The translations under genes and the position numbers were made by a program. 64,000 bases of DNA, from the NCBI GenBank assembly GCA_006969625.1, contig CP030885.1, positions 2,181,430-2,245,429 of the forward strand, given 5' to 3'. Below the pieces are notes generated by a model. That model had not been told where the DNA came from, ran no database searches, and saw nothing but the letters and a program-made list of their open reading frames with translations. The stretch's first letter is position 1; each line of letters begins with the position of its first letter. The stretch is from Rhodospirillaceae bacterium (GTDB lineage Bacteria; Pseudomonadota; Alphaproteobacteria; Kiloniellales; DSM-21159). Of this stretch, positions 20,768 through 42,730 are shown one piece after another.

Positions 20768-22041
20768 GAGACATAGGTGACGGAACGTACCGGACACATG
20801 GGTAACACTTTCCGCTTTGCGCGGGGGGTGTCGATGCCATGGAGAGAGAGTTCGGTTATGGACGAGCGTCTGCGTTTCGTTGCCCGCCTGCTCGACGGCG
20901 AGCGGATGAGCGACGTCTGTCGGGAGTTCGGGATTTCCCGCAAGACCGGCTACAAGATCTATGCGCGCTACCGCGAGGAGGGGGCCTACGCCCTGTGCGA
21001 CCGGTCACGGCGGCCGGTGCGCTACGCCAACCAGCTACCGGCGCCGGTCGAGGCGCTGATCGTTTCGACCAAGCGCGACAAACCGCATTGGGGCGCGCGC
21101 AAGATCCGCGAGTTGCTGATCCGGCGCCTGGCCGGCGACGTGCGGATCCCGGCGCAGAGCACGGTGCACGCCGTGCTCGACCGTCACGGCCTGGTCCAGC
21201 GCGCGCGCAAACGCCGCAACGCGGCCAAAGGAACGCCGCTGTCGGCCGCGCACGCGCCCAACGATCTGTGGTGCGTCGATTTCAAGGGCGAGTTCAAGCT
21301 CGGCAACGGCCGCTACTGTTACCCTTTGACGGTGACCGACCAGGCCTCGCGCTACATCCTCGCCTGCGATGCCCTCGAGAGCACCAAGGAGCCCGGTGCC
21401 TTCGCGGCCTTCGAGCGCCTGTTCTCCGCGCACGGCCTGCCCCAGGCGATCCGCAGCGACAACGGCCTGCCCTTCGCCAGCCCCAACGGGCTCTACAATC
21501 TCTCGCGCCTGTCGGTCTGGTGGCTCAGGCTGGGCATCGCGATCGAACGCATCCCGCCCGGCAAGCCCCAGCGCAACGGACGCCACGAGCGCATGCATCT
21601 CACGCTCAAGACGGAAACCACCAAGCCGGCACGCCACAATGTCCTGCAGCAGCAGGCACGCTTCGACGATTTCGTCCGCGAATTCAATGCCCAACGGCCG
21701 CACGAAGCGCTCGGCATGCGCACGCCGGCAGAGCTCTACCGCCCCTCCACAAGGCTCTATCGCGGATTGGACGAGATCGTCTATCCCTTCCACGACCGTG
21801 ACGTCCTAGTCACCGCCTGCGGGCGCATCTGCATGCACCGCAAGAAGATCAAACTCTCGACCGTGCTCGCCGGGCAGCGGCTGGGACTCAAGGAAGTCGA
21901 CGAGGAAATCTGGCTCGTCTCCTTCCTGCACTACGACCTGGGCTACATCGACCTCGAACAGAGGACCCTACAAACCATCGACACCCCATTCGGCACGAGG
22001 GTGTCACCCATGTCTTAGGAACGATCCGTTACCCATGTCTC
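20768..22041 (+). mobile_element. IS481-family insertion sequence
   Basis: About 1.27 kb with imperfect terminal inverted repeats of about 41 bases (33 of 41 matching) starting GAGACAT at 20768 and ending ATGTCTC at 22041. Each end holds two direct copies of ACATGGGT(A/G)AC, a common layout for transposase binding in IS481 elements. One transposase gene fills the element. No target duplication is evident. Its right end is 20 bp from the island boundary, on the chromosomal side. Confidence 0.85.
20834..22018 (+). CDS. IS481-family transposase
   Basis: 394 residues. An N-terminal helix-turn-helix (RMSDVCREFGISRKTGYKI) is followed by an integrase-core DDE domain: Asp in WCVDFKGEF, Asp in RSDNGLPF, Glu in NGRHERMH. 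A C-terminal extension after the core (about residues 300-394) is typical of this IS481 subgroup. ATG at 20834 is preferred over an upstream in-frame ATG at 20777 that lies inside the terminal repeat. The frame is intact, so the element may still be active. Confidence 0.93.
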   Translation: MPWRESSVMDERLRFVARLLDGERMSDVCREFGISRKTGYKIYARYREEGAYALCDRSRRPVRYANQLPAPVEALIVSTKRDKPHWGARKIRELLIRRLAGDVRIPAQSTVHAVLDRHGLVQRARKRRNAAKGTPLSAAHAPNDLWCVDFKGEFKLGNGRYCYPLTVTDQASRYILACDALESTKEPGAFAAFERLFSAHGLPQAIRSDNGLPFASPNGLYNLSRLSVWWLRLGIAIERIPPGKPQRNGRHERMHLTLKTETTKPARHNVLQQQARFDDFVREFNAQRPHEALGMRTPAELYRPSTRLYRGLDEIVYPFHDRDVLVTACGRICMHRKKIKLSTVLAGQRLGLKEVDEEIWLVSFLHYDLGYIDLEQRTLQTIDTPFGTRVSPMS

Positions 22042-22060
22042 CGGGCTGGACAGTTCCAGG

Positions 22061-22195
22061 GTGGCGGAGACGGAGGGAGAGAATTTAAACACCCTCTTCG
22101 AAACTCTGGCCGAATACGAAGCCCAGCTAGAGCCGCTTCGCCACGAATTTGCCGCCGACCATGACAAGGTAGAACCGGTAGGGCCGCAGCTATGA
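22061..22195 (+). pseudogene. Detached C-terminal coding segment of the island's serine recombinase
   Basis: An open frame runs from the att core to TGA at 22193-22195 and has no start codon or ribosome site of its own. Its 44 residues (ending DHDKVEPVGPQL) are charged and helical in character. The frame matches that of the recombinase gene across the shared TGGCGGAG at 42624: both read xTG-GCG-GAG. The stop overlaps the mobC ATG as ATGA. I infer it is the native recombinase tail, separated from the body by integration. It is presumably untranslated in the integrated state. Alternative: remnant of an unrelated gene cut by the IS. Confidence 0.65.
22062..22069 (+). other. attL core of the island
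   Basis: TGGCGGAG matches the 3' end of tRNA-Ser at 42624-42631. The following bases ACGGAGGGA align with GGGGTGGGA at the other end (14 of 17 overall). Position is fixed by reading-frame continuity as well as by the repeat. Serine recombinases exchange at a 2-bp core, which should lie within these 8 bases. Confidence 0.7.
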
Positions 22196-22617
22196 GCGCT
22201 CCCGCCTCCAAGTCATTCGCCAGCGCTGCGGCATCCTCTGCCGCTTCCGGCAAGCAGCAACGCCCTGCGCCGTTCTCGATCCGCCTGAGCGCCGAAGAAC
22301 GCGCGGCTCTCGAACGCAAAGCCGGGAGCCGTCCGCTCGGGGCGTACATCCGCTCCAAGCTGCTGGATGGCGAAGAGTCACGCCGTAAGCCTGCCCGCAC
22401 CGCCTCGATAGACTACGCGCTGCTGGGCCAGGTACTTGGCAAGCTTGGTAAGTCCGAACAAACCACCTGCCTGTTTCTGCTGGCCGTGGCCGCCGAAGCC
22501 GAGCGAGTCGCCATGGGCGAGGAAGAGCGCGCCGCTCTGGATCGGGCTTGCGCCGATGTGCGGGAGATGCGGGCGCTGCTGATCAAGGCTCTTGGCCTGC
22601 GGGTCGAAGAGCCGTGA
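22192..22617 (+). CDS. mobC: MobC-like relaxosome accessory protein
   Basis: 141 residues. A low-complexity N-terminus leads to PFSIRLSAEERAALERKAG followed by PLGAYIRSKLL, the ribbon-helix-helix-like block of MobC accessory proteins, then helices. MobC proteins bind oriT and help the relaxase open the nick site. The ATG overlaps the preceding partial frame (ATGA), and its stop overlaps the relaxase GTG (GTGA). In the integrated state it has no obvious promoter of its own: 130 bp upstream is the island edge. Confidence 0.85.
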   Translation: MSAPASKSFASAAASSAASGKQQRPAPFSIRLSAEERAALERKAGSRPLGAYIRSKLLDGEESRRKPARTASIDYALLGQVLGKLGKSEQTTCLFLLAVAAEAERVAMGEEERAALDRACADVREMRALLIKALGLRVEEP

Positions 22618-23948
22618 TCCTGGTCGGCAATCAGCGCGGCGGCGGGCGCGATCTGGCCCGGCATTTGATGAAGACCGAGAACGAACAGGTCGAAGTGGCC
22701 GAGCTGCGCGGCTTTGTGGCGGGCGATCTCGATGGCGCGTTCCGGGAGACCTATGCGATCAGCCGGGGCACTAGATGCAGGCAATATCTCTTCTCACTGA
22801 GCCTCAACCCGCCCAAGGGCGCGGAAGTTTCAGACAAAGCGTTCTTCGGCGCAATCACACAGGCCGAGACCAAGCTCGGTCTTGAAGGGCAGCCCCGCGC
22901 TGTTGTCTTCCATGAAAAGCGCGGCGATGACGGGGCGCTCCGCCGCCACGCCCATGCGGTGTGGAGCCGGATCGATACAGACGAGATGAAGGCGATCCCG
23001 CTGCCGCACTCAAAGCGCAAGCTCCAGGATGTGGCGCGTGATCTCCATCTTGAGCATGGCTGGACCATGCCGCGCGGCCTGGCGGTCAGTGGTCAGCGCG
23101 ATCCACGCAACTTCACCCTGGCCGAATGGCAGCAGGCACGGCGGATCAAGGAAGACCCGCGAGAGATCAAGACGGCGTTTCAGGATGCCTGGGCGATCTC
23201 CGATTCCAAAGCAGCTCTCACCCATGCCCTGCAAGAGCGGGGCTACTGGCTCGCCAGAGGCGACAAGCGCGGCCATGTCGCCGTGGATCGTCACGGCGAG
23301 GTGCACAGCATCGCCAAGCGCGTGGGTGTGAAGACGGCTGCCGTGCGCGAACGGCTGGGCGATACGGACGCTCTGCCTTCCGTAGCAGATGCCAAGATCG
23401 AGATCGCACGGGCGATGCAGGCCAAGATGGAGGCCTACCAGCGCGAGGTCGAGGAGAAGGAGGAACGCGAAAAGCAGGAGGCCATCCGCAGGCGCGAAGC
23501 CTTGAAAGCCCGTCAGGAGGCCGAGCGGCGAACGGCTCAAGAGGCGGCGCAGCGCAAGCAGGAGGCGGAAGAGCGCGAACGTCAGGCCCGCCTGCGCGGC
23601 GGCTTGCTGGGCCTGTGGGACAGGCTACGCGGTGAACGCAAGCGGACATTGGAGCGCAATGCCCAGGAGGCCGCGCTTGCCCGCCAGCGGGATCGGGTTG
23701 AGAGAGACAAGCTCACCGCCGCTCAGCTCGCCCAGCGCCGCGAAGTGGTCAAGGAACGGGCGCAGCAGCGCGAGACGAACGAGGCCGTCACACGCGATCT
23801 CACGGAAGACGCCAAGGTCTTCCGACAAATGGAGAGTGACGCCGATGCCGAGCGCGACGCCCGCAAAGAGGCTTTCAAGGAACGCAGGCGCAGCGAAGAC
23901 CGTCCGCGCCGCCGCTCAAGGCAACGCGAAGGGCCGAGCTTGGAGTGA
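22614..23948 (+). CDS. Relaxase / mobilization nuclease (MobA/VirD2-like)
   Basis: 444 residues, GTG start within GTGA. The N-terminal about 200 residues form the relaxase: the opening ILVGNQRGGGRDLARHLM, tyrosine-containing helices (ETYAISRG), and the metal-binding HUH-type cluster RRHAHAVWSRID at about residues 115-126. It nicks oriT and stays bound to the 5' end for transfer. Residues about 260-444 are a long, highly charged, probably coiled-coil tail rich in R/E/Q. Combined with MobC upstream and the coupling protein at 38.3 kb it makes the element mobilizable. The nucleophilic Tyr is not assigned. Confidence 0.85.
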   Translation: MILVGNQRGGGRDLARHLMKTENEQVEVAELRGFVAGDLDGAFRETYAISRGTRCRQYLFSLSLNPPKGAEVSDKAFFGAITQAETKLGLEGQPRAVVFHEKRGDDGALRRHAHAVWSRIDTDEMKAIPLPHSKRKLQDVARDLHLEHGWTMPRGLAVSGQRDPRNFTLAEWQQARRIKEDPREIKTAFQDAWAISDSKAALTHALQERGYWLARGDKRGHVAVDRHGEVHSIAKRVGVKTAAVRERLGDTDALPSVADAKIEIARAMQAKMEAYQREVEEKEEREKQEAIRRREALKARQEAERRTAQEAAQRKQEAEERERQARLRGGLLGLWDRLRGERKRTLERNAQEAALARQRDRVERDKLTAAQLAQRREVVKERAQQRETNEAVTRDLTEDAKVFRQMESDADAERDARKEAFKERRRSEDRPRRRSRQREGPSLE

Positions 23949-24220: not shown

Positions 24221-24314
24221 TGGGTACTTTCGGATATGTTTTTGGGTACTGTGCTGTGCGCCTATTACTACCCAATCTTGCATTTTTGGATATTTATGGG
24301 TAAAATTATGGGTA
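24221..24314 (+). promoter_or_regulatory. Cluster of five TGGGTA/TACCCA motifs upstream of the Fic gene
   Basis: TGGGTA occurs at 24221, 24243, 24297 and 24309, and its complement TACCCA at 24269, within 94 AT-rich bases that end at the fic start codon. Spacings are 22, 26, 28 and 12. The density suggests an operator array, perhaps bound by the winged-helix C-terminus of the Fic protein itself. Confidence 0.5.
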
Positions 24315-25366
24315 TGAGTTTGAATATCGAGTCATTGTTGATCACGCCGCAATTCCTCTCGCTGATTGCCGAGCTGGACGAGTTCAAGGGCGCCTGGAGG
24401 GCGCTGGGCACGCTGGCCCCCGAACGCCTCTCGGCCCTGCGCCATGTCGCGACCATCGAGAGCATCGGCTCCTCGACCCGTATCGAGGGCGCGAAGCTCT
24501 CGGACCGCGAGGTCGAACGCCTGCTTTCCAATCTCGAAGTCCGGCCCTTCGAGACCCGTGACGAGCAGGAGGTGGCGGGCTATGCCCAGACGATGGAAAC
24601 GGTGTTCGCCCATGCGGACTCCATCGCCTTGAGCGAGAACCACATCAAGCAGCTTCACCGCGACCTGCTGCGCCATAGCGCCAAGGATGAGCGCCACCGC
24701 GGCGAGTACAAGACCGCGCCGAACCATGTCAGCGCCTTTAATGAAGAAGGGCGCGAGATCGGGGTGATCTTCGAGACCGCCAGCCCCTTCGATACGCCAG
24801 TGCGCATGCGCGAGCTGGTCGAATGGACAAAGCAAGCCCTGGAGGACCGTTCGCTGCACCCGCTGCTGGTGATCGGGGTCTTCACGGTGGTCTTCCTGGA
24901 GATCCACCCTTTTCAGGACGGCAACGGCCGTCTCTCGCGCATCCTGACCACACTGCTGCTGCTGCGCGCGGGCTATGCCTATGTGCCGTATTCCTCGCTC
25001 GAGAGCGTCATTGAGCAGAGCAAGGAAGGCTATTACCTGGCCCTGCGCCAGACCCAGGCGACCATCCGCACGGACGCGCCGGACTGGCAGCCCTGGCTGT
25101 CCTTCTTCCTCAACAGCCTGCGCCAGCAAAAGCTGCGCCTGGAAAGGAAGCTGGAACGCGAACGCATCACAGCCGCCGCGCTGCCTGCCCTTTCCCTCGA
25201 AATCCTGGAGCTCGCCAAAGAGCACGGCAGGCTCACGATCAGCGAAGTCGTCACGCTGACCGGCGCCAACCGCAACACGGTCAAGAAGCACCTGCAGGCA
25301 CTCGTCGCCGCCAATCACCTGGCCCAGCACGGCAGGGGCAAGGGCACATGGTACGGGCGAGCATAA
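24314..25366 (+). CDS. Fic family protein with C-terminal winged helix
   Basis: 350 residues. It has an N-terminal Fic_N-like region with the inhibitory motif STRIEG (Ser54-Gly59; class II, helix before the Fic core). The catalytic loop HPFQDGNGRLSR starts at His198 and is complete, so AMP-transfer chemistry is plausible. The last 70 residues (GRLTISEVVTLTGANRNTVKKHL) form a winged helix for DNA binding. Such stand-alone Fic-wHTH proteins are widespread in mobile elements; targets are usually unknown. ATG at 24314 is chosen, but in-frame ATGs at 24308 and 24296 are possible and none has a strong ribosome site. GC content is higher than the upstream region. Confidence 0.88.
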   Translation: MSLNIESLLITPQFLSLIAELDEFKGAWRALGTLAPERLSALRHVATIESIGSSTRIEGAKLSDREVERLLSNLEVRPFETRDEQEVAGYAQTMETVFAHADSIALSENHIKQLHRDLLRHSAKDERHRGEYKTAPNHVSAFNEEGREIGVIFETASPFDTPVRMRELVEWTKQALEDRSLHPLLVIGVFTVVFLEIHPFQDGNGRLSRILTTLLLLRAGYAYVPYSSLESVIEQSKEGYYLALRQTQATIRTDAPDWQPWLSFFLNSLRQQKLRLERKLERERITAAALPALSLEILELAKEHGRLTISEVVTLTGANRNTVKKHLQALVAANHLAQHGRGKGTWYGRA

Positions 25367-26524: not shown

Positions 26525-27472
26525 CTGCCGCAGATACTAGCAAGTGATTTATACAGTATTGTTGCGGGCGACCCTGAAGAGTTGGGTGTTCATCTCCAAC
26601 TCGTGGAAAGAGATGTGGCAGTCGAAGACTGTGCCGCTCGATTGCATTGTCATTGTCTGACGGTCGATGGCAATGGACGCGTCAAACCCGAGCGGTTGGC
26701 CGAATTTATGCGGAACGCCATTGTCGATTATGCAATTCCAAAATCCAGAATGGATGACGCGCGTGCTCGCGATGCAAAGCATAAATCCGGAAGTGCTGTT
26801 GCCGCCCTGCATCATGAGGCAATCGGAACATTCACTGACCTAAGTAACACAGGTGAAGGCGGTGAAATGCTGCTCTACCTGCTCGCTGAGCGTTTTCTCA
26901 AAGTACCGCAAGTGCTGTGCAAGATGGACCTTAAGACCGACTCTCACATGCATTACCACGGGGCAGACGGTGTCTATGCCTCTGTAAACGAAGACGGGCT
27001 ACTAAAACTATTCTGGGGTGAATCCAAAGTCTACGCGAACCCCACTGATGCGATCCGAGATTGCTTGAAATCGCTTGCTCCGTTCTTGATAGAAATTGAT
27101 CACGAAGGCGCCGGGCGGGAACGTGACCTCGTTCTCTTGAGCGATAAAGCCGATTTGAACGATCCAGAGCTGACGGCTGCGTTCAAGAAATATTTTGACC
27201 GCACATCGCCACTATCCAATCGTGTAGAGTATTGCGGCATCGCTTTAATTGCATTTGATGCCGACTTCTATCCTAAAGACGGTGTCAAAGCTATAGCTGA
27301 TAAAATCGCATCGGCAGCAAAATTAGAAATGAAAAAATGGATCAAGAACGTCAAAAATAGAGTCTCTGCGGAAAAGTTGGAGAGCTTCGATATTCAGTTC
27401 TTTTGTGTTCCACTGCCATCCGCAGACGGGTTTCGTGAATCATTCCTTAAGGCACTTGGAATCGATAAATGA
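26525..27472 (+). CDS. hamA: Hachiman anti-phage protein HamA (DUF1837 nuclease)
   Basis: About 315 residues if started at the CTG at 26525, which sits 7 bases after a perfect AAGGAG; the first standard start in frame is TTG at 26582, which lacks a ribosome site and would lose conserved-looking sequence (DLYSIVAGDPEEL). The domain is DUF1837, the effector of Hachiman defence. A PD-(D/E)xK-like site is visible: Asp in HGADGVY, then GESK (Glu166 and Lys168 counted from the CTG). In studied systems HamA is a DNA nuclease held in check by the HamB helicase. The stop overlaps hamB by ATGA. Low GC relative to the chromosome marks it as acquired. HamB is interrupted, so function is doubtful. Confidence 0.82.
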   Translation: MPQILASDLYSIVAGDPEELGVHLQLVERDVAVEDCAARLHCHCLTVDGNGRVKPERLAEFMRNAIVDYAIPKSRMDDARARDAKHKSGSAVAALHHEAIGTFTDLSNTGEGGEMLLYLLAERFLKVPQVLCKMDLKTDSHMHYHGADGVYASVNEDGLLKLFWGESKVYANPTDAIRDCLKSLAPFLIEIDHEGAGRERDLVLLSDKADLNDPELTAAFKKYFDRTSPLSNRVEYCGIALIAFDADFYPKDGVKAIADKIASAAKLEMKKWIKNVKNRVSAEKLESFDIQFFCVPLPSADGFRESFLKALGIDK

Positions 27473-27813
27473 AGGATACAGAGCTTTTTGATTGGTTGGT
27501 TCACGAGGCTCTGCAGGCAGACATAGCCAAGCTCACGCAGCTCACTGTTGTAAGGGAAATCACAAATCTGGAAGAAAGTTTTGTGTGCGAAAATCCACAG
27601 CAGGAGTTCAATTGGCAGGAGCTTTTGCTTGCTGGAAGTCTGCTAGCCAGATCGGATCAGCGCGAGCATCAGGAGGCTGCGCTGCGGATTGCGACTGCGG
27701 CGGTCACGCTGGAAAATGCACGAGATACCCAAGACGCTGGAGCCATTCTCCTAGAGAAGCTTTCCAATCATCGGGCCGTTGAGCTGAACACCCGCAAAAA
27801 CCTAGCCCGATAG
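27469..27813 (+). pseudogene. hamB: N-terminal fragment of Hachiman helicase HamB, cut by IS
   Basis: 114 residues beginning MKDTELFDWLVHEAL, linked to hamA by ATGA as expected for hamB. The helical sequence (REITNLEESF, LLLAGSLLARSD, AALRIATAAV) resembles the N-terminal region of HamB-type helicases as I recall the family. The frame ends at TAG just as the inserted IS begins, and the helicase motor resumes after the IS in another frame. I infer one original hamB gene split by insertion. The alternative, a small independent gene, cannot be excluded without homologue comparison. Confidence 0.6.
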
Positions 27814-29030
27814 GGCGTGTCATGATTCACTGCTCTCGGTGATTTTCCGGGAGGGTTTGATGCGTCAGCGTGGCTTTTTCAGTTTGTCGGAGCATCTTGA
27901 GGCTTTGAGCCGGGACGGCGATCCGTTGGAGGTTCTCGATGCGACGGTGGACTTCGAGTATTTCCGGGGCTGGCTGGTCGATGGGCTCGGCTATGGCGAC
28001 GGCGCCAAGGGCGGTCGCCCTCCGTTCGACCCGGTCTCGATGTTCAAGGTTCTGATCCTGCAGGCGCAGCATAATCTGAGCGACGCGCGGATGGAGTTCA
28101 TGATCCGCGACCGGCTATCCTGGATGCGCTTTCTCGGGTTCGATCTTGGCGGGCCGACGACGGACGAGAACACGATCCGCCTGTTCCGCAACAAGCTGAC
28201 TGAGACGGGCACGCTGCGGCGTGTGATGAAGGCCTTCGACTGGCAACTCCACAAGAAGGGCTACATTCCGATGTCCGGCCAGATCGTGGATGCCAGCCTG
28301 GTCCCGGCACCGAAGCAGCGGAACACCGACCCGGAGAAGGCGGCGATCAAGGAAGGTAAGAGCGCCGAGGAGATCTGGCCCGATGAGCCCAACAAGGCTG
28401 CGCAGAAAGACACGGACGCGCGCTGGACGCTGAAGGTCGGCGGCAAGGTCCGATATCGTCCCGACGGCACGCCGCTGCCGATGATCGCTCTACCGGTCTT
28501 CGGCTATAAATCGCACATCGCCATCGATCGCCGGTTCGGCTTCATCCGCGGACAATCCGTCACGTCGGCCTCCTCACCAGATGGTCGGCAGTTGCGGAAT
28601 GTCCTCAGCACCGACAACACGTCCGCCGAGGTCTGGGCCGACAGCGCCTATCGATCACAACGCAATGAGAAGTGGCTGTCGAGCCGGATGCTCGTCAGCC
28701 GCATCCACCGCCGTAAACCGGCAGGCAAGCCGATGCCAACGACGACCGCGCGGGCCAACGCGAAGAAGTCCGCGATCCGAGCCTGTGTCGAGCATGTCTT
28801 CGCCCATCAGAAGAACCGCTACGGTCTGTCTATCCGCACCATCGGGATCAAACGCGCCGAAGCCAAACTGACGCTGGCCAATCTCGCGTACAACATGGAC
28901 CGGCTGATCTTCCATGAACGCCGCGCTGCCGCAGGATGAGTCTGTCCGGACCTGCTGTTCACGGCCTCTCACGACGCAAAATCGAGGCGTCAGGGGCCGA
29001 AATGCAACCCAAAGTTCGTCATGACATCGA
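27814..29030 (+). mobile_element. IS5-family element inserted in hamB (ends approximate)
   Basis: GC-rich block in low-GC surroundings, holding one transposase. The only inverted match near both edges is TGTCATGA at 27818-27825 and TCATGACA at 29019-29026, so the ends are approximate. No convincing target duplication is seen. If the right repeat is correct, the IS end supplies the ATG (29021) from which the truncated helicase could be translated. Confidence 0.55.
27860..28939 (+). CDS. IS5-family transposase
   Basis: 359 residues, DDE type. It starts MRQRGFFSLSEHLEALS, followed by the DUF772-like N-terminal region (FDPVSMFKVLILQAQHNLSD), first Asp in GQIVDASLV, second Asp in VWADSAYRS, and the Glu in CVEHVFAHQKNRYGL. 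ATG at 27860 follows GGGAGGG and is preferred over the in-frame GTG at 27839. The frame is intact, so the element may be mobile. It separates the two parts of hamB. Confidence 0.9.
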   Translation: MRQRGFFSLSEHLEALSRDGDPLEVLDATVDFEYFRGWLVDGLGYGDGAKGGRPPFDPVSMFKVLILQAQHNLSDARMEFMIRDRLSWMRFLGFDLGGPTTDENTIRLFRNKLTETGTLRRVMKAFDWQLHKKGYIPMSGQIVDASLVPAPKQRNTDPEKAAIKEGKSAEEIWPDEPNKAAQKDTDARWTLKVGGKVRYRPDGTPLPMIALPVFGYKSHIAIDRRFGFIRGQSVTSASSPDGRQLRNVLSTDNTSAEVWADSAYRSQRNEKWLSSRMLVSRIHRRKPAGKPMPTTTARANAKKSAIRACVEHVFAHQKNRYGLSIRTIGIKRAEAKLTLANLAYNMDRLIFHERRAAAG

Positions 29031-31318
29031 AATCATCGCTGAAGCGCCAAAATCGAACGGTTGATACGGGTGTCCAGCTGGCACAGAAGCGAAACAGGGT
29101 CGCGCCTGGCCTAGAAAGCAGGCTTGGCGTAGCTTTGCGTCTCGAAGCAAATAGAAGACGCTTCGAAGACTCTATTCTTCTTGAATCAAGCGGTGATTGG
29201 ATAAGCGTCAATTATTTTCAGCGCGAACTATGGAAGGGCGCATCATCTGGTGGAGGCTGGCTATCGGCATCTGCTCCCACGGCGTCCGGTAAAACATTTC
29301 TGTTGCTTCAGTGGCTACTGGATCATCTGCACACTACTGAAACACGAGTCGCGGTCTATATGGCACCAACGCGTGCACTTGTTAGTGAAATTGAGCTGAG
29401 CTTAAAAACTATATGCCGTTCAGATGCAGAAATAGAAATTTCTTCGCTGCCCCTTACTGAAGTATATATTTCAGCGACTGGGGTTGGAAAGAAAGCCATT
29501 TTTGTATTTACCCAGGAGCGGCTACATCTATTGGCGAATTTGCTTGAGGAGAACGTCAAAGTCGATCTTCTGGTCATTGATGAAGCACACAAGATCGGTG
29601 ACAACCAGCGTGGTGTAATTTTAGAGGACGCTATTGAGCGAATTGCACGAGTAAATCCGTCGATGAAAGTCATTTTTATTAGTCCTTCAACGCAGAACCC
29701 CGGTGAACTTCTTGAGGATGCACCAGAGAGCGCGACAAAATCATCGATTGATAGCGATATGCCAACTGTGTTGCAAAACGTCATTCTGGCAGAACAAGCT
29801 CCGCGCAAACCGAAAGACTGGAATCTCGACCTTGTCAGAGGTGACACACATATACGTCTTGGTACTTTAAAGCTGGAAAATAAACCCGCTGGGCTTAAGA
29901 AGCGACTGGCTTTCATAGCGGCAGCCGCTGGAGGGCGCGGCGGCACTCTGGTTTACTGCAATGGTGCGGCAGAAGCAGAAGACGTTGCCCTTCTTATTAG
30001 CCAATTGGAAGGCGACCAGAAGATTGACGATCAAGAGTTGCTTGATCTGGCTGACTTGGCGCGGAAAGGCGTTCACCGAAACTACCAGCTTGCGCCGCTG
30101 GTGGAACGGGGCGTGGCCTTTCACTACGGCAATATGCCCTCGCTCATCCGTACTGAAATCGAGAGGCTCTTCCGCATCGGCAAGATCAGATTTCTGGCTT
30201 GCACGTCGACTCTCATTGAAGGTGTGAACCTGTCATGTAGGACCATAGTGGTGCGCGGCCCACGAAAAGGTCGGGGTCACCCTATGGAGCCGCATGATTT
30301 CTGGAACCTTGCAGGCCGTGCAGGTCGCTGGGGCAATGAATTTCAGGGCAATATCATTTGCATTGATCCACGTGACGAAAAGGCTTGGCCGATTGGCGTG
30401 CCAAAGCGGTCACGCTATCCGATCAAGAGAGAAACTGACGCCGTTTTGGCGTCACCTGACAAACTTGCAGAGTATTTGGAGAGCCGAAATGTCGAGACTC
30501 TGAGCGACCTGCAACAGGGTGAGGAATTTGAACAGGTCGGAGCGTATCTCCTAAGCACCTACATTCGGCTCGGTTCGCTATCGAAAGCCACGTTCGCTAA
30601 GCGCCACTCCGAAGAAGTGCTTCAGAAGCTGGAAAAGAGCCTTCAGAATATTTCAGAATTAATCAGTATCACACAAGAAACTTTGATCAGGCACCCTGGC
30701 GTCAGCGCCGTTGGATTACAGCGCCTTCTTGAGAGCTTCCGAAAGTATGAAGGGAACGTGGAGAATCTTCTGCTCGCCCCATCTGAGAGTGTTGACGCCT
30801 ATGACAGATATATAACAGTCATGCGTGGGATAAATGAAAACGTGTATCCAGTGTTTTTGCCAGATGGCTTGATCCCTCTGCACGCTCTCATCGTTGTTGA
30901 ATGGCTAAGAGGGTTTTCGCTTTCTACTATTATTAGGAGGCGAATCGAATACCATCAAAGGAATAATAAAGCATTCAAGCTGCCAGTTTTGATTAGAGAC
31001 ACTATGGCAATAGTAGAAGAAACAGCCAGGTTTAAGGCACCAAAGTATATTTCCGCTTACGTTGACGTTTTGCGAATTTTTCTCGCGGAAATTGAGCGGG
31101 GCGATCTGATAGATGAAGATTTTGATGTCGGTGTTGCTCTTGAATTCGGTGTGTCCAGCAAGACACTGCTTTCATTGATGGAGCTCGGATTGTCGCGCAT
31201 GTCTGCGGTGGCGCTCTACGAAAAAATCGCGCGAGACGATTTGGACCGGGATGGTTGCCTTTTGTGGATCAATGAGCATGCGCCAAACTTTGCGGGTATG
31301 GATGTACAGAGAGGGTAA
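29021..31318 (+). CDS. hamB: Hachiman helicase HamB, motor part (5'-truncated)
   Basis: 765 residues of a superfamily 2 (Ski2-like) helicase. Walker A is APTASGKT with Lys91; the DEAH box is IDEAH at 186-190; motif III-like SPST; motif V TSTLIEGVNLS; motif VI NLAGRAGRWG (432-436). The long helical C-terminus continues to 765. In Hachiman, HamB binds HamA and restrains its nuclease until DNA damage or phage DNA is sensed. All motor motifs survive, but about 110 N-terminal residues lie beyond the IS. Translation could restart at ATG 29021, which has no good ribosome site. The next IS begins 4 bp after the stop. Confidence 0.8.
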   Translation: MTSKSSLKRQNRTVDTGVQLAQKRNRVAPGLESRLGVALRLEANRRRFEDSILLESSGDWISVNYFQRELWKGASSGGGWLSASAPTASGKTFLLLQWLLDHLHTTETRVAVYMAPTRALVSEIELSLKTICRSDAEIEISSLPLTEVYISATGVGKKAIFVFTQERLHLLANLLEENVKVDLLVIDEAHKIGDNQRGVILEDAIERIARVNPSMKVIFISPSTQNPGELLEDAPESATKSSIDSDMPTVLQNVILAEQAPRKPKDWNLDLVRGDTHIRLGTLKLENKPAGLKKRLAFIAAAAGGRGGTLVYCNGAAEAEDVALLISQLEGDQKIDDQELLDLADLARKGVHRNYQLAPLVERGVAFHYGNMPSLIRTEIERLFRIGKIRFLACTSTLIEGVNLSCRTIVVRGPRKGRGHPMEPHDFWNLAGRAGRWGNEFQGNIICIDPRDEKAWPIGVPKRSRYPIKRETDAVLASPDKLAEYLESRNVETLSDLQQGEEFEQVGAYLLSTYIRLGSLSKATFAKRHSEEVLQKLEKSLQNISELISITQETLIRHPGVSAVGLQRLLESFRKYEGNVENLLLAPSESVDAYDRYITVMRGINENVYPVFLPDGLIPLHALIVVEWLRGFSLSTIIRRRIEYHQRNNKAFKLPVLIRDTMAIVEETARFKAPKYISAYVDVLRIFLAEIERGDLIDEDFDVGVALEFGVSSKTLLSLMELGLSRMSAVALYEKIARDDLDRDGCLLWINEHAPNFAGMDVQRG

Positions 31319-33404: not shown

Positions 33405-33653
33405 CTAGGTGCCTTCCTCGTTCATGAAGGCCGCAACCATCTCTCGGATCGCCCTGGCTTCCTGACCTTTGTCATGCTCTTGCGCATCCAGCGCCTGTTG
33501 CACCGGATGGACACCGAATCCTATCGCTGCGAACTCGGAGACGATCTGCCAGACAAATTCGAGGTATTCGCGCTTAGCCTCTTCCGTCATGTCGGTGCCG
33601 TCGAGGAAATGCATGAATTCGCTCGGATCGAAGGTCGCGTCGTGTTTGTCCAT
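33405..33653 (-). CDS. Small protein paired with a serine resolvase (HPVQQA family)
   Basis: 82 residues, acidic. Its core KREYLEFVWQIVSEFAAIGF then HPVQQAL closely resembles a protein at 40746 (KREFLETMWNLIVEFMSLGF then HPVQQAQ). Both lie next to serine recombinase genes on the same strand, here 15 bp downstream of the resolvase. No known domain recognised. A role as accessory or directionality factor is inference from position only. Confidence 0.7.
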   Translation of the reverse strand: MDKHDATFDPSEFMHFLDGTDMTEEAKREYLEFVWQIVSEFAAIGFGVHPVQQALDAQEHDKGQEARAIREMVAAFMNEEGT

Positions 33654-37948: not shown

Positions 37949-37957
37949 CGCATCCGG

Positions 37958-37988
37958 CCCCCGGCGGTTTCCCGCCGGGGGTCTTTTC
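37958..37988 (+). terminator. Rho-independent terminator
   Basis: A 10-bp perfect stem CCCCCGGCGG / CCGCCGGGGG (37958-37967 and 37972-37981) with a 4-base loop is followed by TCTTTTCG. It separates the 46-residue gene from the coupling-protein genes, which therefore need readthrough or their own promoter. Confidence 0.8.
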
Positions 37989-38014
37989 GCTTTCTGTGCT
38001 TGGGAGATTTTCCG

Positions 38015-38332
38015 ATGTCCGATGTCTACAACAACCGCGCCGCGTCCGGCGGCCCTGAAGGTGGCCCACCGGGGCAGGACCTGCTGGTCGTCACGCTGGC
38101 GCTGCTCGCATCCGTGCTGGGCACGCCGTATCTCTTCCACTTCGCAGGCCCCTTCGTCGAAAAGCTGGTCTACGGGGCCTACGGATCGCGCGATCTGGCG
38201 AGCCTCATGTACTTCGCAAGCTTCGCGCTCTCCGGGGTCGTGATCTTCGCCGTGTGCCGCATGGCGCTCTGGTACGCCATTGCCGGGGTCGTTGCCTTCG
38301 GCTCGATGCGCATGGCCGGTCTGGCGATCTAG
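38015..38332 (+). CDS. Small inner-membrane protein, probable membrane partner of the coupling protein
   Basis: 105 residues with three hydrophobic segments (about 22-48, 62-83, 85-103). It ends 3 bp before the coupling-protein ATG. VirD4/TraG proteins normally carry N-terminal membrane helices, and the one downstream lacks them, so this protein may supply the membrane part as a separate chain. No family recognised. Start at ATG 38015 is preferred over the upstream frame start. Confidence 0.65.
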   Translation: MSDVYNNRAASGGPEGGPPGQDLLVVTLALLASVLGTPYLFHFAGPFVEKLVYGAYGSRDLASLMYFASFALSGVVIFAVCRMALWYAIAGVVAFGSMRMAGLAI

Positions 38333-38335
38333 GCC

Positions 38336-39952
38336 ATGGCCGCGCCTTCCGATAGCGGCGCGGCCCCTTACGGCTCGGCGCGGTTTGCGACCTCCCAGGA
38401 GATCGCCCGCGCCGGGCTGTTCGCCCGCCAGCCGCACTCGCTGCTGATCGGCTTCTTCGAGGGCCGCGCGCTTTGGTATTCCGACATGGGCGGCGGCATG
38501 TGCGTCGCCGGTCCGCGTTCCGGCAAGCTGCGCGACCTGCTCGCCTACAACATCTGCGCGGGCATCCACGCCCCGACCATGGCCGTCCTGGACGTCAAGG
38601 GCGAGCTGGCCAGCGTCGCGCGCGATCAGACGCAAGACCGCAAATTCTGCCTGCACTGGAACCCGCACCGGCTGCACGGCCTGCCGCAGGACCGGATCAA
38701 CCCGCTCGACTACCTGCGCAAGGATAGTCCTTCGCTGATCTCCGATACGAAGCGCTTCGTGGAGAACGCGCTGCCTGCGAGCGGCAGCCCGCACAGCGTC
38801 TACTTCGAAGGCCGGGCAAGAGAGTTCGTCGAAGCGCTCTGCCTGGCGCTCGTCTTCCGGGACGGCGTGCTGACCTATCCGGCGCTCTACCGCGCGATCA
38901 ACCTCCTGGTGATGGGCGGAGAGGACTGGCTCGATCTCGCCTTCGAGCTGGCGGATAGCGACATCGAATTCCTGCGCCGCATCGAAGGCGAGATCGCGCA
39001 ATCCCGCGACGACAGCTCGGGCGGCTTCCGGGGGATCCTGGGCGAGATCACCAAGGCCTTCGCGTGCCTGTCCGATCCCGTGCTGATGGACTCGGTCTCG
39101 CCGCCCTTCACCGCCTCGCTCGGCGATCTGTGTTCGAGCGACCGGGCCTATCAGCTCTACCTCATGCCGCCGGGCGATATGGTCGAGCCCTGGGCGCCAA
39201 TCATCAAAAGCGTCTTCGTGGCCGCGCGCACCTATAAGGCCCGCGCGCCTGCCGCGCCGCGCCAGACCTGGGTGCTGGACGAAATCGGCAATCTCGGCGC
39301 CTTCCCCCAGGCCGTGCAGCTCTTCACGCGCGATGCCGGGCTCGGCATCCGGCCCTGGGGCTTCTGGCAGTCCACCCAGCAGATGGCCGCGCTCGGCCCC
39401 GGCGCCGAGAAGATCATTCCGGCCTCGGCGGGTTTGCAGAACTGGTTCGGCGTGCGCGACCTGGAGACCGCCACCACGCTCTCGCGCATGCTGGGCAACC
39501 GGACGCTGCGCTACACCGACGAACAGGCGCGCGAACGATCCCTACACGCCAAGCGGCAAGCCGCCATGGCGGCCTTCAGCGGGCGCGATCCCTTCCGGGC
39601 GGCTTTTGAGGCGGCCCACCACGCCCGCATGGCGGAGCTGCCTGCGCTTAAGGCCCTGCCGCTGATGTGTCCCGACGAAGTGCTCGGCCTGCCGCAAGGC
39701 AAGCAGATCGTCTTCGTGGACGGGCTGGCGCATCCGGTGCTGGCCGACCGCGTCCCGTACTACGCCATGCCCTTCATGGCGGGGCGCTATCACCCCAACC
39801 CGTACTTCCCGCCGCAAGACCGCGTGCAGGTCATGACCCCGCGCGGCCCGGCCTGGCGGCGGGTGATCGTCGAGCCCGTGCCGCGGCGCTTCGCGCACTA
39901 CCCGCAATACCGCAACGGACTCTGGAGCCGCATAGGGAGCCGCATCGCATGA
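38336..39952 (+). CDS. Type IV coupling protein (VirD4/TraG family), soluble form
   Basis: 538 residues. It lacks the usual N-terminal membrane helices. An N-terminal TraG-like segment (YGSARFATSQEIARAGLF) leads to Walker A GPRSGKL (Gly59-Leu65), where relatives usually have a small residue after Lys, then the fold LLAYNICAGIHAPTMAVLDVKGEL, and Walker B WVLDEIGNLG (Asp315-Glu316). TraG-type motifs STQQMAALG and NWFGVRD are intact. It would link the relaxase-DNA complex to a transfer channel supplied by another element. Its stop overlaps the next gene by ATGA. Confidence 0.85.
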   Translation: MAAPSDSGAAPYGSARFATSQEIARAGLFARQPHSLLIGFFEGRALWYSDMGGGMCVAGPRSGKLRDLLAYNICAGIHAPTMAVLDVKGELASVARDQTQDRKFCLHWNPHRLHGLPQDRINPLDYLRKDSPSLISDTKRFVENALPASGSPHSVYFEGRAREFVEALCLALVFRDGVLTYPALYRAINLLVMGGEDWLDLAFELADSDIEFLRRIEGEIAQSRDDSSGGFRGILGEITKAFACLSDPVLMDSVSPPFTASLGDLCSSDRAYQLYLMPPGDMVEPWAPIIKSVFVAARTYKARAPAAPRQTWVLDEIGNLGAFPQAVQLFTRDAGLGIRPWGFWQSTQQMAALGPGAEKIIPASAGLQNWFGVRDLETATTLSRMLGNRTLRYTDEQARERSLHAKRQAAMAAFSGRDPFRAAFEAAHHARMAELPALKALPLMCPDEVLGLPQGKQIVFVDGLAHPVLADRVPYYAMPFMAGRYHPNPYFPPQDRVQVMTPRGPAWRRVIVEPVPRRFAHYPQYRNGLWSRIGSRIA

Positions 39953-40633: not shown

Positions 40634-40678
40634 TTGTGCTGCGGCAAGTGATCGACTATAAATGTTCTGTATTTGTTC
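40634..40678 (+). promoter_or_regulatory. LexA (SOS) box overlapping the recombinase-operon promoter
   Basis: GTTC at 40664-40667 and GTTC at 40675-40678 are separated by exactly seven bases, the GTTC-N7-GTTC LexA box of alphaproteobacteria. It immediately follows a -10-like TATAAA (40657-40662), which is 17 bp from a weak -35 TTGTGC (40634-40639). LexA bound here would block transcript start at about 40669. First gene downstream is the small protein at 40746, then the serine recombinase. Confidence 0.7.
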
Positions 40679-40745
40679 TGTCGCGCGGCAAAGGAAAGGA
40701 GGCGGGTCGACGAACGAGAATTCGAGCGAAGAAGGAGACGGCGCG

Positions 40746-41102
40746 ATGACCGAACGCAGCGACGACAACACGACCCCAGAGACGCAGAAGGCACGGCCCG
40801 TCATCGCCTTCGACTACGAACTCTACGAGCACTACCTCGCCGATACCGACCTCAGCGAGGACCAGAAGCGCGAATTCCTCGAAACCATGTGGAATCTCAT
40901 TGTCGAGTTCATGTCGCTCGGCTTCGAGATTCACCCCGTCCAGCAAGCCCAAAACGCCTGTGGAAAACTTTCCGAAAGTCGCAGTAAACCGCCAATTTCA
41001 GGCGGTTCTGGGGTACAATCGAAAGGTAAATTTCCAGGTACCGATTTTAGCGATGCCGCCAAGGGGAGCGCCCCAGAAGCGGCGGAAAGAATTCGAAAAT
41101 GA
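40746..41102 (+). CDS. Small protein coupled to the large serine recombinase (HPVQQA family)
   Basis: 118 residues. The core KREFLETMWNLIVEFMSLGF then HPVQQAQ matches the 82-residue protein at 33405. A divergent Ser/Gly/Lys tail of about 45 residues follows. ATG 40746 has AAGGAG 8 bases upstream. The stop overlaps the recombinase ATG (ATGA), so the two are translated together. Its 3' part contains an inverted repeat AACCGCC / GGCGGTT (40987-41007) followed by TACAAT (41014), possibly an internal regulated promoter. Role unknown; an excision or control factor is a guess. Confidence 0.75.
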   Translation: MTERSDDNTTPETQKARPVIAFDYELYEHYLADTDLSEDQKREFLETMWNLIVEFMSLGFEIHPVQQAQNACGKLSESRSKPPISGGSGVQSKGKFPGTDFSDAAKGSAPEAAERIRK

Positions 41103-42730
41103 AGAACGATTCAAACCAAGCCAGAGCCGTCATCTATTGCCGCGTCTCCAGCGCCGCCCAGGTGGCCAAGGGCGCGGGAAACGCCAGCCAGGAAACCCGT
41201 TGCCGCGAATTCGCCCGGATGAAGGGCTACCGCGTGGCGGAAGTCTTCGCCGATGAGGCGGTTTCCGGCGGGATTATCGACCGGCCCGGCATGCTGGCGA
41301 TGCTGGCCTATCTCAAGGCGCATAGGCGCGAGGGCGAGCATGTCGTTCTCATCGACGACATCAGCCGCCTTGCCCGCTCGATCCGGGGGCACCTCGATCT
41401 GAGGGAAGCGATTTCCGAAACGGGGGCACGGCTGGAAAGCCCGTCTGTCGAGTTCGGCGAGGACTCGGATTCCATCCTGGTCGAGAACCTGCTCGCGTCC
41501 GTCTCGCAGCATCAGCGCCAGAAGAACACCGAACAGACCGCCAACCGCATGCGCGCGCGGCTGCTGAACGGCTATTGGACGTTCAGTTGTCCGCCGGGCT
41601 ACCGCTACGAAGCGCGGCCCGGCGAGGGCAAGATGCTGGTGCGCGCCGAGCCCCTGGCCTCGATCATCGCCGAGGCGATGGAAGGCTATGCCTGCGGACG
41701 CTTCCAAACTCAGGCCGAGGTGAAGCGGTTTTTCGAGGGCTTTCCGGCCTTCCCGAAGACAAGGTACGGCACGGTGACGAACGAGAACGTCAACCGCATC
41801 CTGACCCGCGTCCTCTACGCGGGCTATCTGCATCGTCCCGAATGGGGCGTATCCCTGCGCCGCGCTCGGCACGATGGGCTGGTCTCGCTGGAAACCTTCG
41901 AGCGCATCCAGGAGCGTTTGAACGGCAAGGCTAAGCTTCCGGCCAGGGCCGATCTAAACGCGGATTTTCCGTTGCGGGGCTTCGTGCTCTGCGGTGACTG
42001 CGAACAGCCGCTCACCGCTTGTTGGTCGAAGAGCAAGACCGGCAGAAAGCACCCGTACTACATGTGCTTCAATCGCTCCTGCGAGAGCCACCGCAAATCC
42101 ATCCGCAAGGATGAAATCGAGGGGCGCTTCGCCGCCTTGCTGGAAGGCCTCCAGCCTTCGCCCACCATGGTCGAGATGGTGCGCGATATGGCCGGGCGTG
42201 TCTGGGACCGGCTGGGCCAGCAGGCGCGGGAGATAGGCCTACAGACCAAGCGCCGCATGGCGGAGATCGAAAAGCAATCCACGGCGCTGCTGGACCGGAT
42301 TGTCGAGGCTTCCAGCCAGCCGCTCATTACACGCTACGAACAGCGCCTTGCCGAGTTGGAGCGCGAACGTCTGGTGATGGCCGAGAAGCTCGAAAGCCAA
42401 GCCAAGCCGCGCAAGACCTTCGGGGAGATGTTCGAACTCACCCTGAGCTTGCTCGCAAACCCCTATAATATCTGGGAAAATGGGTCTCTGGACCGCCGCC
42501 AGGCGGTGCTGAGAGTGACCTTCGAAGACCGCCTCGTTTACTGCCGGAATGGAGGGTTTCGAACCCCGAAAACATCCATTGTTTTCAGGATATTAGATCA
42601 GTTTTCCGGGCAAAAAGAGGTAATGGCGGAGGGGGTGGGATTCGAACCCACGAGGGGCGTAAACCCCTGCCGGTTTTCAAGACCGGTGCATTCGACCGCT
42701 CTGCCACCCCTCCGCTATCGGGCTGTCTAG
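41099..42730 (+). CDS. Large serine recombinase of the island, C-terminus chimeric with tRNA-Ser antisense
   Basis: 543 residues as integrated. The catalytic domain starts AVIYCRVSSAAQ with nucleophile Ser17; IDDISRLARS carries the conserved Arg residues. A recombinase domain (about 165-270), a zinc ribbon with Cys298/Cys301 and CFNRSC, a coiled-coil segment (about 370-420) and a C-terminal LSLLANPYNIWENG block follow. The frame crosses the att core at residue 509 and continues for about 34 residues read from the strand opposite tRNA-Ser (MAEGVGFEPTR...). Joined to the left island end, it would instead continue for 43 residues and stop at mobC. It catalyses integration and, probably with a partner, excision. 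Confidence 0.9.
   Translation: MKNDSNQARAVIYCRVSSAAQVAKGAGNASQETRCREFARMKGYRVAEVFADEAVSGGIIDRPGMLAMLAYLKAHRREGEHVVLIDDISRLARSIRGHLDLREAISETGARLESPSVEFGEDSDSILVENLLASVSQHQRQKNTEQTANRMRARLLNGYWTFSCPPGYRYEARPGEGKMLVRAEPLASIIAEAMEGYACGRFQTQAEVKRFFEGFPAFPKTRYGTVTNENVNRILTRVLYAGYLHRPEWGVSLRRARHDGLVSLETFERIQERLNGKAKLPARADLNADFPLRGFVLCGDCEQPLTACWSKSKTGRKHPYYMCFNRSCESHRKSIRKDEIEGRFAALLEGLQPSPTMVEMVRDMAGRVWDRLGQQAREIGLQTKRRMAEIEKQSTALLDRIVEASSQPLITRYEQRLAELERERLVMAEKLESQAKPRKTFGEMFELTLSLLANPYNIWENGSLDRRQAVLRVTFEDRLVYCRNGGFRTPKTSIVFRILDQFSGQKEVMAEGVGFEPTRGVNPCRFSRPVHSTALPPLRYRAV
42624..42631 (+). other. attR core inside the tRNA-Ser 3' end
   Basis: TGGCGGAG, the antisense of the tRNA acceptor end CTCCGCCA, repeats the sequence at 22062. 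The core keeps the tRNA 3' end intact after integration. Confidence 0.7.
42624..42713 (-). tRNA. tRNA-Ser (anticodon UGA)
   Basis: 90 nt including encoded CCA. The acceptor stem GGAGGGG pairs with CCCCTCC; the D-arm follows with GCAGAGCGGTCGAATGC; the anticodon stem CCGGT/ACCGG brackets the loop with TGA; a long class II variable arm (about 17 nt) precedes the T-arm with GGTTCGAATCC. The T-arm and CCA confirm orientation. Its 3' end is the island's integration site, and the gene appears intact. Confidence 0.95.

What the first reader, a model, noticed from the sequence alone, without database searches (positions are those of the whole stretch)
22061..22195. Excision would rebuild the recombinase gene and fuse it to the mobC-relaxase operon
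Seen: the island ends share TGGCGGAG, at 22062 and 42624. The serine recombinase frame reads through the right copy as ATG-GCG-GAG. At the left end an open frame reads GTG-GCG-GAG in the same phase and runs 43 more codons to a stop that forms ATGA with mobC; mobC forms GTGA with the relaxase. Joining the ends, as in an excised circle, gives one uninterrupted recombinase of about 552 residues in a translationally coupled operon with mobC and relaxase. When integrated, mobC has no visible promoter. Inference: mobilization genes are expressed only after excision, so integration itself is the off-switch. Promoter gating by circularisation is known for some ICEs; a coding fusion across attP with relaxosome genes is, to my knowledge, not described for this type.
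Basis: partly seen in the sequence, partly recalled or inferred. Interest (0 to 1): 0.95.

Follow-up and report, generated by a model that had tools for sequence, protein, structure and literature searches.

The report
Excision rebuilds a split recombinase-transfer operon
In this bacterial genomic island the recombinase gene runs across the island's edge, and a matching tail for it lies in the same reading frame at the other edge, joined to transfer genes, so cutting the island out would rebuild one operon and likely switch the transfer genes on.

Summary
The island (22062-42631) sits at the 3' end of tRNA-Ser(TGA). Its large serine recombinase reads through TGGCGGAG into the tRNA; the left end carries 43 codons in the same phase, ending in ATGA with mobC. 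A homologous 'tail' frame precedes mobC in 72 of 81 loci (80 relatives plus the window), and in 69 of 72 its stop overlaps a start codon in the mobC frame. In 34 of 34 scored islands (37 paired), recombinase and tail match in phase at the core: 30 in one phase, 4 in another. The tail behaves as coding (pN/pS 0.29; 1.03 and 1.43 in the other frames). It also carries T[CT]GAA 5 bp farther out than the tRNA does, the known attP/attB offset of serine integrases. Five remnants show recombinase and tail joined in one frame. The coding fusion across attP is thus well supported. The off-switch is inference: the promoter scan had no power, and an IS transposase points at mobC here. No circle or intact fused gene was seen. 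A 2011 Dehalococcoides paper guessed at something similar.

The parts
22062..22069 (+). left copy of core TGGCGGAG (attL)
22061..22195 (+). detached 3' end of the recombinase gene ('tail', 43 codons after GTG, then TGA); its start would also be the tRNA-side arm of attP
22192..22617 (+). mobC-like gene, start overlaps tail stop (ATGA)
   Evidence: no Pfam or NCBIfam hit, so the name rests on position before the relaxase
22614..23948 (+). relaxase, MobA/VirD2 type (PF03432), GTGA overlap with mobC
38000..39952 (+). small gene (38000-38332) and VirD4/TraG-like coupling protein (38336-39952)
40662..41102 (+). small gene whose stop overlaps the recombinase start (ATGA)
41099..42622 (+). large serine recombinase up to the core (508 codons): PF00239, PF13408
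42624..42631 (+). right copy of core TGGCGGAG (attR), inside the tRNA 3' end
42632..42730 (+). replacement C-terminus of the integrated recombinase, read antisense from tRNA-Ser and just beyond
42624..42713 (-). tRNA-Ser(TGA), integration target

Best explanation
The recombinase gene of this likely mobilizable island runs across the island's att core at the tRNA, so integration is predicted to cut off its last 43 codons together with the downstream mobC and relaxase genes, and excision would rejoin them as one translationally coupled operon. Shown by sequence: matching phase at the two ends, ATGA and GTGA overlaps, a tail frame under protein-level selection in relatives, a 5-bp motif offset that fits attP against attB, and the same joint in remnants elsewhere. 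Inferred: the place of crossover (within the shared TGGNG[CG]) and the existence of the circle. Predicted and untested: while integrated, the recombinase carries a tail read from the tRNA and mobC-relaxase lack the island's own promoter; after excision the promoter upstream of the recombinase (possibly upstream of the coupling-protein gene) drives recombinase, mobC and relaxase from one message, and the native tail is restored for re-integration.
For: Tail HMM hit upstream of the relaxase in 72 of 81 loci, and in 4 of 4 further relatives fetched from plasmids or a viral contig (L190, L216, L217, L218; a fourth plasmid hit, H4, was not fetched). Tail stop overlaps or abuts a start codon in 70 of 72, in the mobC frame in 69 of 72. 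Phase at TGG equal at both ends in 34 of 34 scored of 37 pairs, 30 in one phase and 4 in another; L013 and L014, unscored there, match. pN/pS 0.29 in frame against 1.03 and 1.43 in the other frames, 21 pairs chosen by me; over all pairs, columns 10-29, pS 0.82 and pN 0.39 in frame against 0.53/0.46 and 0.31/0.52. Leu15, Trp18 and Leu22 of the HMM kept in 72, 70 and 71 of 72, third-position entropy 1.58 and 1.80 bits at the two Leu. T[CT]GAA at +18 in 33 of 34 tRNA ends and at +23 in 46 of 65 anchored tails, background 14 of 3185; a 5-bp zinc-domain motif shift is reported for serine integrases in PMC3783163 (passages). Recombinase-tail-mobC joints in L042 and L036; three more recombinase-tail joints.
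Against: No intact fused gene was seen: the five joints are fragments or carry stops. A protein-database search with the L042 tail gave 7 candidates and 0 hits; 0 of 120 listed homologs match the tail HMM; 0 of 31 places in 23 of 385 class genomes run beyond residue 107 of the 148-residue joint query. The four phase-2 islands may be one or two lineages. Nine of 81 loci lack the tail, five of them with ample upstream sequence (L032, L073, L078, L084, L085). In three tails the mobC start is not in the expected place or frame (L031, L068, L075). No expression data; the promoter scan is uninformative; an IS transposase is aimed at mobC here. The empty site could not be shown.
Confidence: 0.78

Rival explanations
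1. The coding fusion is real but does not gate transfer: mobC and relaxase are transcribed in the integrated state from flanking chromosomal or IS promoters, or from a promoter of another type inside the tail; the fusion serves only the recombinase.
For: IS481-like transposase 20777-22018 (+) ends just left of the core; the promoter scan covers only a sigma-70 consensus and found nothing on the + strand upstream of the recombinase either; a Shine-Dalgarno-like stretch in the tail end could let mobC be translated from any message (my reading of the sequences).
Against: About 130 bp of coding and attP sequence leaves little room for a conserved promoter; the upstream flank is chromosome and differs between islands; the ATGA overlap is kept in 65 of 72.
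Confidence: 0.3
2. The left frame is an independent small gene or leader peptide of mobC that starts at the core ATG or GTG, unrelated to the recombinase.
For: Of the 52 tails aligned at the first HMM column, 51 have Met (39) or Val (12) there. Seven loci whose genome gave no recombinase match at E 1e-20 still have a tail: L017, L037, L054, L062, L068, L086, L089; most of these are draft MAGs.
Against: 11 of 72 tails have no in-frame ATG, GTG or TTG before the conserved Trp; a ribosome site for a start at the core would lie in the chromosome; phase follows the recombinase; natural joints.
Confidence: 0.06
3. The frame is open only because attP DNA is conserved; no protein is made from it.
For: The first part of the tail carries the attP-like motif (T[CT]GAA at +23) and varies less at third positions there (columns 8-9).
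Against: Amino acids are kept beyond the motif (columns 11-23) and pN/pS is low only in this frame.
Confidence: 0.04
4. Chance: a short shared word and a chance open frame.
For: A 44-codon open frame alone is not rare in GC-rich DNA (general knowledge).
Confidence: 0.01

Closest known systems
DsiB serine recombinase of Dehalococcoides ssrA genomic islands (PMC3146451; passages only)
   Same: Serine recombinase gene always overlaps the att site at its 3' end and reads on into the target or the next island; the authors suggest it may be fully functional only on the circle or next to an island that carries the 3' fragment.
   Different: Target is ssrA, not tRNA; in the passages I saw the stop codon is left unclear, no conserved 3' fragment is shown and no fusion to mobC-relaxase is mentioned.
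Integration-dependent immunity of mycobacteriophages (PMC9262239; passages only)
   Same: attP lies inside a gene and integration changes that protein's C-terminus, so integration is the switch; target is a tRNA gene.
   Different: The altered protein is a repressor, the recombinase is a tyrosine integrase, and the switch sets lysogeny. [quoted passage not shown]
Archaeal 'suicidal' SSV-type integrases (PMC8371274; passages only)
   Same: The att site lies in the integrase gene and integration splits it; related elements can restore it.
   Different: Tyrosine recombinases; the gene is split into two parts judged inactive. [quoted passage not shown]
Circularisation-gated ICE transcription, as in Tn916 (recalled, not read for this point)
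   Same: Transfer genes are transcribed across the att joint only in the circle.
   Different: Promoter read-through, not a coding fusion of the recombinase with the relaxosome operon.

Membership tests
Large serine integrases | Resolvase catalytic domain plus zinc-ribbon domain | tested here: met
   PF00239 and PF13408
Large serine integrases | Fold like solved serine integrases, with coiled coil | tested here: met
   Tested on the relative P0241, not on the window protein: mean pLDDT 81.9, pTM 0.61, long helices 355-401 and 405-431; the ten best PDB hits are serine integrase chains, TM-scores 0.19-0.41, low perhaps because domains move
Large serine integrases | Zinc-domain motif 5 bp farther from the centre in attP than in attB | tested here: met
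   +23 in 46 of 65 tails, +18 in 33 of 34 tRNA ends; one half-site only, and that this motif is the zinc-domain site is inferred (rule from PMC3783163)
Large serine integrases | Directionality set by a recombination directionality factor | not testable with these tools
   No factor identified; small gene 40662-41102 is only a candidate
Integrative mobilizable elements | Own relaxase and integration module, no full conjugation apparatus | tested here: inconclusive
   Relaxase and coupling protein found; 19 frames scanned with Pfam, not every frame of the island
Suicidal (SSV-type) integrases | Tyrosine recombinase split into inactive parts by integration | tested here: not met
   Serine recombinase; catalytic and zinc domains stay on one side of the core
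Integration-dependent immunity | attP inside a repressor gene next to a tyrosine integrase | tested here: not met
   The core lies in the recombinase gene itself, serine type

The most novel reading that the evidence does not exclude
The recombination reaction rewrites its own enzyme and its own operon: the circle encodes a native-tail recombinase that integrates, the chromosome encodes a tRNA-tailed isoform that excises, and this tail swap sets direction while the same joint switches the relaxosome genes on. One att site would thus control direction of recombination and transfer at once, across a widespread family.
Probability: 0.3. Interest if true: 0.92.

Novelty: new variant of a known kind. 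Interest (0 to 1): 0.8.

Why it matters
It would be a self-contained genetic switch in which a site-specific recombinase changes its own C-terminus, and probably the expression of the mobilization genes, by the act of recombining, at many tRNA genes and in many bacteria. It also means that database entries of this recombinase family often end in translated antisense tRNA: of the 120 best homologs listed (of 2410), at least 98 show the GFEP-type pattern and none carries the tail, so their likely true C-terminus lies at the far end of the island. It offers a testable case of how islands may keep relaxases silent in the chromosome, and a natural example of tail-dependent integrase behaviour.

Tried and rejected
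Core detection by tRNA end or, failing that, longest common word scored 36 pairs and gave 29 phase matches. The seven others were L020, L027, L031, L070, L092 (a T-loop or other word taken for the core) and L075, L077 (a second core copy farther upstream). One of the 29, L035, rests on a spurious word and I do not count it; L058 found no core there. Re-anchoring on the tRNA CCA or T-arm scored 34 of 37 pairs, all matching; L013 and L014 had no TGG in the search span (both match) and L035 had no tRNA. In L019 and L020 the left anchor shares only TGG and is weak. In L027, L031 and L070 the fourth core base differs between the ends. Two right ends (for L028 and L074) are partial recombinases.

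The tail search used stop-to-stop peptides, so openness of that frame is by construction; the phase, selection and coupling tests are not. Its misses: L032, L039, L041, L044, L052, L073, L078, L084, L085; L039, L041 and L044 have under 320 bases upstream of the relaxase, L052 about 560. The weakest accepted hit is L068 (20 bits). The 21 pairs were chosen by me as relatives and overlap. In L217 the tail lies about 130 bases before mobC and no relaxase is annotated next to it.

A protein search for fused proteins found none. Viral contigs gave 0 and one relaxase locus. Plasmids gave no recombinase for the window at E 1e-30 and two partial ones for P0241 at E 1e-20. In some searches two short matches that cross the core (G110:C56, G076:C2) were not counted as joints. 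Alignment A2 mis-placed the short tails and was dropped. The tail part of the model (helix 516-531, block pLDDT about 44-53) is too uncertain to interpret. The empty site could not be shown: the left neighbour gene was found in 9 of 11 relatives, but the flank after it is not conserved in those read. Ten paper searches did not list a paper that I could see describes a recombinase-mobC-relaxase coding fusion; I saw listings, and passages of five papers.

Full report
What is there. The island occupies 22062-42631 between two copies of TGGCGGAG. The right copy is the 3' end of tRNA-Ser(TGA), minus strand. It carries, left to right, a mobC-like gene, a MobA/VirD2-type relaxase, a Fic protein, IS elements, a Hachiman defence pair (HamA, and HamB interrupted by a transposase gene), a resolvase, a VirD4/TraG-like coupling protein and, at the tRNA, a large serine recombinase. 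No drug-resistance gene appeared among the frames scanned (19 with Pfam, 10 with NCBIfam). The genome is one contig of 4.62 Mb. Named relatives of the proteins are alphaproteobacteria such as Oceanibaculum, Marivibrio and Thalassobaculum, so the host is probably one too.

The recombinase frame runs through the right core as ATG GCG GAG and on through the tRNA, antisense, to 42730. The left core opens in the same phase as GTG GCG GAG and runs to a TGA at 22193 that overlaps the mobC ATG; mobC overlaps the relaxase GTG. By arithmetic an excised joint would encode 552 residues.

Reading into a tRNA is a habit of the family. Of the 120 best of 2410 homologs, 98 carry a GFEP-type antisense tRNA translation after residue 480, and two shorter ones (P0026, P0057) carry it earlier. 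None matches the tail HMM. The other 20 have other C-termini that I did not resolve.

Is the left frame a real piece of the gene? Within 1 kb upstream of the relaxase, 72 of 81 loci (window included) hold a homologous peptide before mobC, consensus roughly M[AV]xxxGESSNxLFETLADWEHQLKHxxIDF..EGPxP. Its stop forms ATGA (65), GTGA (3) or TAATG (2) in 70 of 72, and that start is in the mobC frame in 69 of 72. In 11 of 72 there is no ATG, GTG or TTG in frame before the conserved Trp, so there the tail cannot be a separate gene by usual start codons.

Phase test. For 37 islands, window included, both ends could be paired. Anchored on the CCA of the target tRNA, 34 were scored, and in 34 of 34 the recombinase frame and the tail frame have the same phase at the core and both are open to it. 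Thirty are in one phase and four (L028, L066, L069, L072) in another, matched at both ends. The four may share ancestry, so this is few independent events. Targets called include tRNAs for Ser, Arg, Thr, Leu, Met, Val and, in an unscored pair, Lys. In 32 of 34 the ends share TGGNG[CG] (L019 and L020 share only TGG at weak anchors); the crossover presumably lies in those bases.

Selection. Over 21 chosen pairs, pN/pS of the tail is 0.29 in the proposed frame and 1.03 and 1.43 in the other two. Leu15, Trp18 and Leu22 of the HMM are kept in 72, 70 and 71 of 72 tails; third positions of the two Leu codons have entropies of 1.58 and 1.80 bits. So the tail is very likely translated in some state.

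DNA function of the same stretch. T[CT]GAA lies at +18 from the core in 33 of 34 tRNA ends (the T-loop) and at +23 in 46 of 65 anchored tails, against 14 of 3185 background positions. A 5-bp outward shift of the zinc-domain motif in attP relative to attB is reported for serine integrases (PMC3783163, passages). The tail start thus probably doubles as the tRNA-side arm of attP. The ten best PDB hits of the model of relative P0241 are serine-integrase chains.

Natural joints. In L042 a decayed recombinase of one island runs in frame through the core into the tail and mobC of the next island, whose own recombinase and tRNA-Arg lie farther on. In L036 a recombinase fragment does so with no stop, again before an island with both ends. 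Of 70 genomes searched with the L036 joint, three more remnants were found: two in G081, one of them at the left end of L066, and one in G083. Such arrays would recreate the attP joint. No intact fused gene was found there, in 385 class genomes or in the protein database. That fits a rare circle but is also the main gap.

Mechanism. Shown: the two ends fit one gene, and the coupled mob genes lie with its tail. Inferred: the circle re-forms the operon. Predicted: mobC and relaxase are silent when integrated. The sigma-70 scan found nothing in 21900-22400 but also nothing on the + strand upstream of the recombinase, so it cannot decide. In this strain the IS481-like transposase aims at mobC and may leak. 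The recombinase itself overlaps the stop of an upstream small gene (ATGA); 25 of 52 recombinase loci show the same. A terminator-like hairpin of 12 pairs at 37956-37983 precedes the coupling-protein genes, though such sites are no more frequent than in shuffles (3 found, 5.0 expected); the message may start near 38000.

Known and new. The closest precedent is DsiB in Dehalococcoides, whose authors guessed at full function only on the circle (PMC3146451, passages). Integration-dependent immunity (PMC9262239) and archaeal suicidal integrases (PMC8371274) place attP inside a gene but with tyrosine enzymes. I file this as a new variant: a serine recombinase's own conserved tail is lost and regained, together with the relaxosome operon.

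Noticed in passing
27469-27813, 27839-28939, 29021-31318: The HamB helicase of a Hachiman defence pair is interrupted by a DDE transposase gene: about 112 first residues match HamB before it, the rest after it.
   Followed up: no
24236-25366: Fic protein matching the PADLOC SoFic profile.
   Followed up: no
40662-41102 and 33405-33653: Small protein with an LGFEIHPVQQA-like motif next to the recombinase; a match to it (E below 1e-4) lies within the fetched stretch in 43 of 52 recombinase loci, and 25 of the 52 have an ATGA overlap at the recombinase start. Candidate directionality factor. A similar short frame lies at 33405-33653 (by eye).
   Followed up: partly
20777-22018, inverted arms 20790-20806 and 22028-22044: IS481-like element next to the island's left core, transposase pointing towards mobC; exact ends not settled.
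   Followed up: partly
L050, L074, L075, L077 left ends: A second copy of the core lies upstream of the tail, suggesting older accretion events.
   Followed up: no
L073, L078, L085 (Nitrosomonas): Related mobC-relaxase modules without the tail; in two of these three draft genomes no recombinase of this family was found at E 1e-20.
   Followed up: partly
P0013, P0015, P0020, P0021, P0092 and others: Homologous recombinases with C-termini that are neither GFEP-type tRNA translations nor this tail.
   Followed up: no
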